From the IMG/VR virus record IMGVR_UViG_3300048597_000129, positions 1 to 32,589 of that record: 32,589 nucleotides of DNA. One strand, given 5' to 3'. The notes below the pieces were generated by a model. The model worked only from the letters and a program-made list of their open reading frames with translations, was not told the DNA's origin and did no database searches. Position numbers and translations under genes: made by a program. Origin of the DNA: a virus. Numbering within the stretch: the stretch's first letter is position 1; each line of letters opens with the position of its first letter. Shown piece after piece: positions 211-32,279 of the stretch.

Positions 211-1290
211 ATGCTGGGCAAAGCAACAAAAAAGCAACTTAAGAAACCAGGGGAACTAGAAACTGCGCTGAGGAGAATGATCCATGCGCAGGGCAAAGCT
301 GACTCGACGGCAGACTGCTACTGGGAGTGGACTGAAAAGTACATCAAATGGGCCTCGGCTCGGCAAAAAAGGTGGGTGCATCCTAAGGAAATGGGGCGGG
401 CGGAGGTCGAACGATACTTGTCTTGGTTGGCGAACGATCGACGAATCTCGTCGACAACTCAGAATCAAGCGTTCTCGGCTCTTTGTTATCTGTATCGATG
501 GGTGATTCGCGTGCCGATTGAGGATTGCTCGGCTTTGCGATCGAAGACGCCGGACGGTATTCGCGAGGTTGTTGACGAGTCGGAGCTTGTAAAGCTGTTC
601 GACGAGCTTTCTGGGATTCCGCTTCTGTGCGCTAGCATGATGTACGGCAGCAACTTTCGGATCGGTGAACTCGGTCGGCTGCGCATGAAGGATCTATCTT
701 TCGAGCGTAGGCAAATCATCATCCGTGGTGCAAAAGGCAAGAAGGATCGCATTGTCCCGTTTCCTGAGCTGATCCACGCGGCGGTGCGTAGCCAGATTGA
801 ATCGATGCGTGTGCTATGGAGAGCCGATTGCGAAGATGGTCTCAACGGCGTTTCGTTGCCGGACGCGTTCGGCCGGAAGTCTCCCAGGGCTCACAACGAA
901 TTTGCTTGGTACTATTTGTTTTCGGCTGACGATTACAGCAAGTGCCCGCATACTGGCAAACTTTTTCGTCACCATCGCGACATGGATAACGTAGCTCGGC
1001 AGATTAAGAACGCGGCGATACGTGCGGGATTGGAGAAGCGAATCACAAGCCATTGCTTACGACACTCGTACGCGACGCATTCACTTGAGAACGGTGTGCC
1101 GATTCATGTGGTGCAAAAGCTGATGGGACATGCGTCGATCGAGACGACGGAAACCTATCTGCATGTTTCGAAAAAGGGGATCACTTCGGCAAAAAGCCCT
1201 TTGGAGACAATGCTTGAAGTGCCAAAAATTGCAGATGAGAAACGCAACATACCTGAAGAAAGACAGACATTGAGGCTATTCGTCGGATGA
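211..1290 (+). CDS. Integron-integrase-like (IntI family) tyrosine recombinase
   Basis: A site-specific recombinase of 359 residues that would cut and rejoin DNA through a tyrosine. The catalytic set is complete: R150 (in NFRIGEL), K175 in AKGKKDR, H281 and R284 in HCLRH, H307 in MGHAS and Y316 in ETYLHV. Residues about 216-255 (LPDAFGRKSPRA, then W..LF, CPHTG and RHH) match the extra helix segment that separates integron integrases from XerC/D, and align well with my memory of IntI1 (LPDALERKYPRA, DPRSG, RRHH). The N-terminal core-binding domain spans about 15-110. ATG 211 follows GGGTGCG, a weak ribosome site. The gene overlaps the next by ATGA, so they are probably co-translated. A phage integrase with an IntI-like insert is the alternative to a true integron integrase. 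Confidence 0.88.
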   Translation: MLGKATKKQLKKPGELETALRRMIHAQGKADSTADCYWEWTEKYIKWASARQKRWVHPKEMGRAEVERYLSWLANDRRISSTTQNQAFSALCYLYRWVIRVPIEDCSALRSKTPDGIREVVDESELVKLFDELSGIPLLCASMMYGSNFRIGELGRLRMKDLSFERRQIIIRGAKGKKDRIVPFPELIHAAVRSQIESMRVLWRADCEDGLNGVSLPDAFGRKSPRAHNEFAWYYLFSADDYSKCPHTGKLFRHHRDMDNVARQIKNAAIRAGLEKRITSHCLRHSYATHSLENGVPIHVVQKLMGHASIETTETYLHVSKKGITSAKSPLETMLEVPKIADEKRNIPEERQTLRLFVG

Positions 1291-27091: not shown

Positions 27092-27298
27092 ATGCGTTTT
27101 GATGTGTGGCTGATAGATTCTGTAACGGCAATTATGACACTTATCGAAAAAGATCTGGCAGAGGGAGATGCTTTGGAATGGTGGAATGAGTGGAACAAGA
27201 ACCATCGAAACTGCGTCTGCGTTCTCGCTCCGTCGGATGTAGAAATTCCAGAAAGTTTTAAGACGATCAATACGAATCGAATTCGCGAACGCCTTTAA
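27092..27298 (+). CDS. Small protein, unknown
   Basis: 68 residues, helix-rich with a W-W-W patch (ALEWWNEWNKNHRNC). Start ATG follows AAAAAGGG. It converges with the 220-residue GYF_2 gene, and their 3' ends overlap by about 30 bp. No family recognised. It could be an accessory expressed from the divergent region. Confidence 0.45.
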   Translation: MRFDVWLIDSVTAIMTLIEKDLAEGDALEWWNEWNKNHRNCVCVLAPSDVEIPESFKTINTNRIRERL

Positions 27299-27929
27299 CG
27301 AGTCGGCGTTGTTCGCTGAACTTACGAATGTTTTCGCGAAGTTCTTTGCCGACCTTTGCAGAGATCCCAGCGATGTATTGAATGGGGCTCGACGTGTCGT
27401 TGGTGTTCAGGCGAATTGTGCCAAGTCCAACGATGCGATCAAATATGGATTGCGTAAATGCAGAGTCTCGAATGCGATGGAGCTCAATTTCCTCGGTATG
27501 CTTTGCAATCACTCCTGAGTGAGTCTTCAATCGCTCGTTGGTGAGTTCGTATATCGTCGATCGAGTTTGCAGGATACGCCAAATCGCAACGAAAATCGGA
27601 ACGACTAACCAGAAAAACAACGTACACCAAAAGAACGTGCGAAGGTTTGTAAGTTGCGACGGAGTCCCCTTCCAAGCGAGAGTTTCACCTTGCTGTGCAA
27701 CAAGAGGTCGGACGGGTTGCGGAGCGATCGAGGTCGCGACGGCTGCTGCTTCCGCTGCTGGCCACGGCAAACCCTTGAGCTTTACGATTGGATGCCAAGG
27801 ACCAGCGGTTTCGTTTGCGATCTCTGCTTGATTGGAGATTACAGCATTCGCTACTCGTTGCTTAAGATCGTTTGCTGTGTAAGGCCCCTTGGTTCTACCA
27901 CTTTGCCGAACGTACCATTCTTTTCTCAT
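27267..27929 (-). CDS. GYF_2 plus bacterial PH domain membrane protein
   Basis: 220 residues. N-terminal 1-48 (EWYVRQSGRTKGPYTANDLKQRV, then GPWHPI) is a GYF_2 domain, a proline-motif binder. Residues 98-120 (TFFWCTLFFWLVVPIFVAIW) span the membrane once or twice. About 125-200 (STIYELTNERLKTHSGVIAKHTEEIELHRIRD) is a bacterial PH domain of the bPH_2 type. The layout is known for many membrane proteins of unclear function. In a prophage it could be a host-modifying or exclusion gene (inference). Confidence 0.8.
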   Translation of the reverse strand: MRKEWYVRQSGRTKGPYTANDLKQRVANAVISNQAEIANETAGPWHPIVKLKGLPWPAAEAAAVATSIAPQPVRPLVAQQGETLAWKGTPSQLTNLRTFFWCTLFFWLVVPIFVAIWRILQTRSTIYELTNERLKTHSGVIAKHTEEIELHRIRDSAFTQSIFDRIVGLGTIRLNTNDTSSPIQYIAGISAKVGKELRENIRKFSEQRRLVKGVREFDSY

Positions 27930-30402: not shown

Positions 30403-30477
30403 GGCCAGGCAAGTCAGGGACTTGCGCGGCGTGGCCGGGCAGTGCCGGGCATGGCGTGGTGAGGTAAGGCAAGGTTT
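30403..30477. repeat. GGCNN pentamer array 1
   Basis: Fifteen consecutive 5-mers from GGCCA to GGTTT, most fitting GGCNN (some GTCAG, GGACT, TGCGC, TGCCG, GGTGA). It ends GGTAA GGCAA GGTTT and is followed by a T-rich run and the ribosome site of the 200-residue gene. No gene in it. Confidence 0.7.
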
Positions 30478-30502: not shown

Positions 30503-31105
30503 ATGGCGATAGCGATTGCAAGCGACACACGGTTGGAGAAAGTTACACGACACGTGGTGCTGAAAGGGGAGAACGAGATCATGTTCGATCGGTACGCGGG
30601 GGACAACTCGACGAAATTGAGTTGGGATCAAAAGATTTATCTCAAGCCGGGGACAAACGTCCTAGCTTTGCCAGCGATAAACATCATTTCATTCTTATCG
30701 GCCCATAATACCAACAGCGCACCAAAAAGGCTTCGCGATAAACGAAAGTACAAAGACATAGCGAATTCCTGTCTTTCTTTCGTTCAAGTATTGGGAGGTT
30801 CGTATATCCCATTTCTTCGGGATGGTAAGCCGATTGAGGTTGGTGCATTCACTGACGACGTGGACACGAAAAGTGGGCTCTATTTACACCGCGCCGTTGC
30901 ACGTTTGGACAAGGGTATACCAAACCCGAAAGAGCGTCCCGTGCTTCCCTTGGAATGGTCACTCGCGTTTGATGTAGCAATCTTGGCCAACAAGGAAATC
31001 AAAGAACAAGAGATTAAGAATCTCTTTGTCGAAGGCGGCGCGGCAATTGGATTAGGAACATTTAGAGGCGTCTACGGTAAGTTTTCAGTCGACGTCTGGG
31101 AGTAA
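30503..31105 (+). CDS. Conserved phage protein, unknown
   Basis: 200 residues. Start ATG 30503 follows AGGAG by about 10 bases; an overlapping ATG at 30499 is in another frame. A strand-rich N-terminal half (RYAGDNSTKLSWDQKIYLKP) leads to FLSAHNTNSAPKRLRDKRKY (about 64-83), IPFLRDGKPI, IPNPKERPVLPLEWSLAF and the end EGGAAIGLGTFRGVYGKFSV (about 177-196). I remember the FLSAHNTNSAP/GLGTFRGRFG phrases from many phage early regions, without a known function. It is flanked on both sides by GGCNN arrays. Confidence 0.75.
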   Translation: MAIAIASDTRLEKVTRHVVLKGENEIMFDRYAGDNSTKLSWDQKIYLKPGTNVLALPAINIISFLSAHNTNSAPKRLRDKRKYKDIANSCLSFVQVLGGSYIPFLRDGKPIEVGAFTDDVDTKSGLYLHRAVARLDKGIPNPKERPVLPLEWSLAFDVAILANKEIKEQEIKNLFVEGGAAIGLGTFRGVYGKFSVDVWE

Positions 31106-31110
31106 GAAAT

Positions 31111-31350
31111 GGCAAGGCCATGCGCGGCCCGGCGCGGCAAGGCAAGGCCATGCTCGGCATGGCAGCGCGAGGCGAGGCAAGGCCATGCACGGATTGGCTC
31201 GGCAAGGCCATGCACGGCGAGGCGCGGCAAGGCCATGCTCGGCATGGCAGCGCGAGGCGAGGCAAGGCCATGCACGGATTGGCTCGGCAAGGCGAGGCAC
31301 GGCAAGGCCATGCACGGCGAGGCTCGGCAAGGCGAGGTAAGGCGAGGTTT
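31111..31350. repeat. GGCNN pentamer array 2 with segmental duplication
   Basis: Forty-eight consecutive 5-mers, nearly all GGCNN or TGCNN. A 60-bp block (31141-31200) is repeated exactly at 31226-31285, a shift of 85 bp (17 units). Each copy carries a 7-bp perfect hairpin GCCATGC-TCG-GCATGGC (31147-31163, 31232-31248). The array ends GGTAA GGCGA GGTTT, like array 1. It lacks stop codons, so it reads as open frames on both strands, but I judge it non-coding. Confidence 0.85.
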
Positions 31351-31383
31351 TTTAGGACAAACTATTTAAAATTGGAGGTAACA

Positions 31384-31905
31384 ATGGTAGCAACAATGCA
31401 AGCAGTTTGGACGGACACTCACGGAAATTGTGTGACGTCTGGAAACCGATATGCGGTCGGTCGCGGTTCTCGGGTAAAGATTTCGACGCAGGTTACCCTG
31501 TACGAAGACCCTGAAAGCGGTCGGTGGTTTGGAACGCCGCGGTCTGGTGGTAATGCAATTCCTTACGGCATTCCAGGCGAACAGGACGCGCAAGGCGAGT
31601 CTGCGAAGCTGGCGTTCGTGCCATTGGGTGACGACTGGGAGGAGATCGCCGGAAGCCGTTTCGAGCGTGAGAGCCTTGATCGTCGTGTTGCGTACGATCG
31701 GATTCTAGTCAAAGCCATGAAGGCCCGCGACGCGTTGGCGCGTGCTTACGACGAGTTGCTCGAGCTCGCGTGCGACAAGCTAACCGAAGACGAATGCGAT
31801 CGTCTGCATGGCAAGATCTATAACGATGCTCATACCGATGAGCATATTTTCGAACTCGTCGATCGTCCGTTTTTGAATGCGTGTATGGCAAGGAGCGAAA
31901 AATGA
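31384..31905 (+). CDS. Phage early-region protein, unknown
   Basis: 173 residues from ATG 31384, which has GGAGG five bases before it. A frame open further upstream runs through the pentamer array and is rejected. The first 40 residues are strand-rich. The C-terminal half is a charged helix (AYDRILVKAMKARDALARAYDELLELACDKL). A DDWEEIAGSRFERESLDRR segment links them. No family recognised. The stop overlaps the Lar-like gene by ATGA. Confidence 0.65.
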   Translation: MVATMQAVWTDTHGNCVTSGNRYAVGRGSRVKISTQVTLYEDPESGRWFGTPRSGGNAIPYGIPGEQDAQGESAKLAFVPLGDDWEEIAGSRFERESLDRRVAYDRILVKAMKARDALARAYDELLELACDKLTEDECDRLHGKIYNDAHTDEHIFELVDRPFLNACMARSEK

Positions 31906-32279
31906 AGACGAGTCAATTGCCTTGCCCGTTTTGTAAGACAGCGGAAACCGTATTGGAATTTACAGACGATCCGGATAACCCACTTTTTTTTCATCGATGC
32001 CAAGTCTGTTGCGCTCAAGGACCGTACGGTGCGACAGAATGGGCGGCTGGTTTAGCTTTCAAGCAATGTGAAGTTGATCTTCTTGATATGGATGAAAAGG
32101 TGATTGAGCTGTTTGTTTCGAGTTGTCCGGCCGAGGTCGTGATTGAGGCACAAAGGTTTATAAAGGCGCATGTTGAGGATGCGGTTGTGATCGCTGGAGT
32201 AGTATTAAAAAGGTTGTGTGTTAAGCGAGAGCTTCGCGACGGTCATCTGGTCTTCGTAATTCCTGAGTTCGCAGATTAA
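31902..32279 (+). CDS. Lar-like restriction-alleviation / zinc-ribbon protein
   Basis: 125 residues from ATG 31902 (ATGA overlap). The N-terminal CPFCKTAETVLEF, then HRCQVCCAQGPYG and WAAGLAF, follows the Lar family pattern: CPFC, CxxC, and a short end. Lar modulates host type I restriction. The remaining 75 residues (EVDLLDMDEKVIELFVSSCPAEVVIEAQRF, then LKRLCVKRELRD) are extra and unrecognised. A zinc-binding protein with another role is the alternative. Confidence 0.65.
   Translation: MKTSQLPCPFCKTAETVLEFTDDPDNPLFFHRCQVCCAQGPYGATEWAAGLAFKQCEVDLLDMDEKVIELFVSSCPAEVVIEAQRFIKAHVEDAVVIAGVVLKRLCVKRELRDGHLVFVIPEFAD

What the first reader, a model, noticed from the sequence alone, without database searches (positions are those of the whole stretch)
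31111..31350. Pentamer GGCNN array with exact 60-bp duplication and embedded hairpins
48 units with strict 5-nt period fill most of the gap between two early genes. A 60-bp block is duplicated with an offset of 85 bp, a multiple of five. Each block holds a perfect GCCATGC/GCATGGC hairpin. The array has the same ending (GGTAAGGC.AGGTTTTT) as array 1. It could be an element that grows by slippage, a packaging or replication signal, or an RNA structure between genes.
Basis: seen in the sequence. Interest (0 to 1): 0.6.

Follow-up and report, generated by a model that had tools for sequence, protein, structure and literature searches.

The report
Phage VIPR guide-RNA array beside Vipr gene
The repetitive stretch is a bank of guide RNAs for a phage-encoded VIPR system, a recently described relative of CRISPR in which a small protein uses every-five-base repeats to recognise DNA, apparently to fight rival phages.

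Summary
The pentamer array is real and not chance. It is a guide-RNA (vrRNA) array of a VIPR system (Viral Interference Programmable Repeat; preprint PMC13142463, 2026), not a slippage relic, packaging signal or hairpin element. The gene upstream (30503-31105, 200 aa) encodes a Vipr-type RAMP protein. Its AlphaFold model matches CRISPR Csm3/Cas7 subunits (Z about 10). A profile of it and other array-adjacent proteins finds the solved SUSP1 Vipr (PDB 36pp) at E=5.6e-33. Array 1 (30403-30475, 14 units) lies upstream of vipr and array 2 (31111-31345, 47 units) downstream. The coupling holds in both directions: 67 of 68 viral loci with a related vipr carry GGCNN arrays, nearly always directly beside it, and 85 of 120 viral contigs picked only by the DNA repeat encode a Vipr, all within 1 kb of an array. 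GGY is fixed and NN unconstrained, as expected of guide letters. The 85-bp-offset duplication is confirmed (68 bp exact) and reads as a guide duplication. Near-identical phages differ by whole pentamers. The hairpins are at chance level. No natural target, conserved vap gene or structured 3' tail was found. Known kind, new member; the long merged array is a modest variant.

The parts
30403..30475 (+). vrRNA array 1: about 14 GGY/NN pentamers upstream of vipr (some degenerate units, e.g. GTC, GGA, TGC), NN stream CA AA AG CT GC GT CG AG CG AT GT GA AA AA; T-rich 3' end to about 30488
   Evidence: Sequence; detector score 21; same ending as array 2 and as the vrRNAs of Candidimonas locus L196
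30503..31105 (+). vipr gene, 200-aa RAMP-fold protein with C-terminal glycine-rich loop EGGAAIGLGTFRGVYGKF; ribosome-binding site AGGAG about 8 nt upstream
31111..31345 (+). vrRNA array 2: 47 GGY/NN pentamers in one uninterrupted phase
31141..31208 (+). first copy of the 68-bp exact duplication (13 whole guide units), offset 85 bp = 17 units
31226..31293 (+). second copy of the 68-bp duplication
31111..31180 (+). proposed vrRNA V1 (14 units, ends GA GA AA)
   Evidence: Inference: vrRNAs of relatives end in A/G-rich units and are 9-16 units long in PMC13142463
31181..31265 (+). proposed vrRNA V2 (17 units, ends GA GA AA); shares its 3' half with V1 and its 5' half with V3, as expected if the duplication created it
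   Evidence: Inference from the NN stream
31266..31345 (+). proposed vrRNA V3 (16 units, ends AA GA AA GA), followed by GGTTTTTT at 31346-31353
   Evidence: Inference from the NN stream and the sequence

Best explanation
This is a VIPR locus of a temperate phage. Array 1, the vipr gene and array 2 lie on one strand in the early region and are presumably transcribed together. The RNA is cut or otherwise defined into vrRNAs of about 14-17 GGY/NN units. Vipr, a Cas7-like RAMP protein, coats each vrRNA, presumably one protomer per pentamer: GGY is held by the protein and the two N bases face out to pair with DNA, read as NNxNNx with one target base skipped. Bound complexes repress genes of competing phages or prophages. 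The duplication in array 2 copied 17 guide units and produced a third, chimeric guide. Shown here: protein family and fold, array grammar, physical coupling, duplication. Inferred from the preprint or from homology: RNA processing, pairing rule, repression, rival phages as targets.
For: The profile of array-adjacent proteins including this one hits SUSP1 Vipr in the PDB at E=5.6e-33 over its full length and the first 50 kb of the SUSP1 genome at E=6e-36 as the only hit; even the narrow clade profile finds it as the only PDB hit. AlphaFold pLDDT 84; the listed best solved-structure matches are CRISPR RAMP (Cas7-type) subunits, led by Csm3, Z about 10. 67 of 68 vipr relatives have GGCNN arrays, nearly all on the same strand and directly beside the gene. 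85 of 120 contigs chosen by repeat alone encode a Vipr, median 65 nt from an array. NN positions carry 0.08 and 0.00 bits. No other neighbour is shared widely, so protein plus array is the unit.
Against: No natural target found: five exact 9-unit scans gave two hits whose flanking units do not match, and relatives' guides found none. No structured tail. At 47 units array 2 exceeds the published 9-16 units. No vap gene recognised.
Confidence: 0.92

Rival explanations
1. A neutral pentamer microsatellite made by slippage, without function.
For: Arrays do gain and lose whole pentamers and array 2 holds a duplication.
Against: A microsatellite would not keep GGY fixed while NN is free across hundreds of unrelated loci, nor track one gene family; most long arrays in relatives have no large internal duplication.
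Confidence: 0.03
2. A cis-acting DNA or RNA signal: replication origin, packaging site, attenuator or hairpin-based processing element.
For: Intergenic, early region, folds somewhat better than shuffles (z -2.2 and -3.2), contains 7-bp hairpins.
Against: Hairpins are at chance level in 410 arrays; one phage can carry many arrays around vipr (L161, L180); no Rfam match; little conserved sequence beyond the GGY grammar and A/G-rich end units.
Confidence: 0.03
3. The array is translated into a repetitive protein (open frames of 69-261 aa overlap it).
For: Open frames exist on both strands.
Against: A GGC-rich 5-nt period leaves frames open by composition; unit gains of 5 and 25 nt in relatives shift the frame; vipr and the downstream gene have their own ribosome-binding sites.
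Confidence: 0.01

Closest known systems
VIPR systems (type II examples: Escherichia phage SUSP1, Pseudomonas fulva prophage; PMC13142463)
   Same: RAMP-fold Vipr of about 200 aa with G-loop; GGY/NN tandem-repeat RNAs on both sides of the gene; phage-borne
   Different: Distant Vipr clade (full-length match only through a broad profile); no vap neighbour recognised; one array of 47 units in one phase with an internal guide duplication; ends in a T-run instead of a visible structured tail
Class 1 CRISPR-Cas (Csm3/Cas7 RAMP subunits)
   Same: Protein fold and glycine-rich loop; presumably a protein that lines up along a guide RNA
   Different: No direct repeats with unique spacers and no cas genes noted in the ORFs examined; guide letters interleaved every five bases
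Candidimonas nitroreducens locus L196 and Mycobacterium Cheoctovirus (cluster F1) phages
   Same: vipr with GGYNN arrays beside it; L196 vrRNAs also end AAGGCAAGGTTTTT
   Different: L196 has separate shorter arrays with spacers; Cheoctovirus Vipr is only about 19% identical

Membership tests
VIPR | Vipr protein: RAMP fold (RRM core, G-loop) | tested here: met
   AF2 model pLDDT 84, listed matches are CRISPR RAMP (Cas7-type) subunits, mostly Csm3, Z about 10; glycine-rich C-terminal loop conserved in the family
VIPR | Sequence homology to a characterised Vipr | tested here: met
   SUSP1 Vipr 36pp, E=5.6e-33 with profile A2; E=8e-5 with narrow clade profile A1
VIPR | vrRNA of alternating GGY and free NN, 9-16 repeats | tested here: met
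   Array 1 has 14 units; array 2 has 47, divisible into 14+17+16 by its A/G-rich end units, slightly over 16 in one
VIPR | vrRNAs in intergenic stretches flanking vipr | tested here: met
   Window and nearly all of 68 relatives
VIPR | Carried mainly by phages | tested here: met
   Portal, head protease, terminase and integrase in the window
VIPR | Invariant, structured 3' tail | tested here: inconclusive
   T-runs after the arrays are enriched (34 of 115 against 7% background) but no common structure was found
VIPR | Accessory vap gene | tested here: inconclusive
VIPR | Target DNA read as NNxNNx (one base skipped) | tested here: inconclusive
   No skip length stood out in held loci; no convincing target
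VIPR | vrRNA expressed and bound by Vipr | not testable with these tools
   Needs small-RNA sequencing and pull-down
CRISPR-Cas class 1 | CRISPR array of near-identical direct repeats with unique spacers | tested here: not met
   Five-base grammar only; the long repeat is a single internal duplication

The most novel reading that the evidence does not exclude
A VIPR variant in which a continuous 47-unit array without spacers yields overlapping or chimeric guides, and new guides arise by duplication and gain or loss of whole pentamers at a recurring 13-bp word (GGCAAGGCCATGC, seven copies), that is, guide evolution by recombination inside the array instead of spacer capture.
Probability: 0.3. 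Interest if true: 0.7.

Novelty: new member of a known kind. Interest (0 to 1): 0.6.

Why it matters
VIPR was described only in 2026 as a possible forerunner of CRISPR with an interleaved guide code. This locus places it in a further phage lineage, shows that the DNA repeat alone can pull out VIPR systems from metagenomes (85 of 120), adds named mycobacteriophages as carriers, and gives natural examples of how guide arrays change: duplication and whole-pentamer steps. How VIPR acquires new guides is not explained in the preprint's main text, and such sister arrays make that testable.

Tried and rejected
Target search: five exact 9-unit one-skip scans of viral contigs. Two hits, L199 and L206, both in coding sequence with the skipped base at the wobble position, but adjoining units do not match and about one hit per scan is my rough chance estimate, so neither is claimed. 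Guides of relatives against 144 Paraburkholderia-genus genomes and 268 genomes of the Candidimonas family: 1 match against 2 controls, and none. All guides against the loci held here with 0-3 skipped bases: real and shuffled broadly alike; the best 3-skip matches were not followed up and may be unmasked array copies. NN composition against codon positions: positions 1-2 fit slightly best (KL 0.068 against 0.078 and 0.184), too weak to claim. Hairpins as a functional element: chance level. Ribozymes or known RNAs: none in the window; one int-alpA RNA in L146, away from the array question. tRNA and promoter scans: nothing useful. Host assignment failed: nearest Vipr in named genomes are Paraburkholderia, Candidimonas, a Methylococcaceae bin and a Patescibacteria bin. 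The VIPR type could not be assigned, as the preprint's supplement was not available. VIA-align and Foldseek did not list 36pp; their library stops in April 2026.

Full report
What is there. The window is a 32.6-kb uncultivated virus record with terminase, portal, head protease and tyrosine integrase genes. Near its right end three elements lie on the plus strand: array 1 (30403-30475), an ORF of 200 aa (30503-31105) and array 2 (31111-31345), then a gene starting at 31384. GGCNNx4 is found 7 times in the window, always here, against 0.02 expected.

Which gene goes with it. Relatives of the ORF were fetched from viral contigs by protein alone (68 loci). In 67 of them GGCNN arrays are present, nearly always directly upstream or downstream of the gene and on its strand; most other trinucleotides tested at the same period give few or no arrays. 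In the other direction, 120 contigs were chosen by the DNA pattern (GGCNN)x8 alone. An iterated profile of the ORF family finds a member in 85 of them, the great majority over nearly the whole model, all within 1 kb of an array and at a median of 65 nt. Neighbouring genes are not widely shared between loci; the commonest, in 11 of 73, is a recombination-type gene. The functional unit is therefore this protein plus the arrays.

What the protein is. Profile A1 (26 close relatives) finds one entry in the whole PDB, SUSP1 Vipr, 36pp, at E=8e-5. Profile A2, built from the window protein and array-adjacent proteins of unrelated loci, finds it at E=5.6e-33 over its full length, and finds the same gene in the first 50 kb of the SUSP1 genome, KT454805, as the only hit. 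The AlphaFold model (pLDDT 84, pTM 0.80) matches CRISPR RAMP subunits, chiefly Csm3, with Z about 10. The conserved C-terminal GGxAIGLGTFRGVFGKF fits the glycine-rich loop of RAMP proteins (my reading).

What is known. A preprint (PMC13142463) describes VIPR: a RAMP protein, Vipr, and vrRNAs of 9-16 units alternating GGY and NN, reading target DNA through the NN letters with one target base skipped, used between competing phages. It mentions staggered arrays with overlapping vrRNAs. Its main experiments were on SUSP1 and P. fulva systems; whether this clade was among its seven types I could not check.

How it probably works here. The grammar of 410 arrays is G 1.82, G 1.82, Y 1.57, N 0.08 and N 0.00 bits. 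The first three values are partly imposed by how the arrays were picked; the last two are not. Arrays of relatives end in A/G-rich units (AA, GA). By that mark array 2 divides into guides of 14, 17 and 16 units. The middle one shares its 3' half with the first and its 5' half with the third, which is what the 17-unit duplication, starting at the recurrent word GGCAAGGCCATGC (seven copies), would produce. This division is inference. Only a few of the other long arrays have a repeat of this size (L078 has a 14-unit one), so the duplication looks local to this phage. Whole-pentamer change is natural: L137 and L138 differ from L139 by 5 and 30 nt in the array with identical genes, and L152 and L153 by 25 nt.

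What was not shown. No target was found, the skip rule could not be tested with the sequences held, and neither a structured tail nor a vap gene was recognised. Expression, processing and function in this phage are inferred by homology.

Verdict. A new member of VIPR, with a long merged guide array that carries an internal duplication.

Noticed in passing
L004 3001-4046; L005 3001-3957; L006 3001-3961: Mycobacterium cluster-F1 phages (Cheoctovirus: Donkeykong gp49, Quico QUICO_57, BobaPhett gp52) encode a Vipr homologue right after a GGCNN-like array. Donkeykong gp48 and BobaPhett gp51, annotated as hypothetical proteins, lie on the array and are probably mis-annotated vrRNA.
   Followed up: partly
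window 211-1290: An integron integrase (TIGR02249, 296 bits against a cut-off of 265) sits at the left end of this phage contig; whether it is host or phage was not resolved.
   Followed up: partly
window 31881-32279: Small protein resembling Lar-type restriction alleviation proteins, below the curated cut-off.
   Followed up: no
window 27267-27929: Protein with a GYF_2 and a bacterial PH domain on a phage contig.
   Followed up: no
L013 6311-7008; L179 3944-4313: Uninterrupted GGCNN arrays of 140 and 74 units, the longest seen; how such arrays are divided into guides is unclear.
   Followed up: no
L136 and L150, spacers between arrays upstream of vipr: Repeated spacers between arrays share a stem-loop-like sequence (GGTGGAAACACCAA), a candidate for the vrRNA tail; no Rfam match.
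   Followed up: partly
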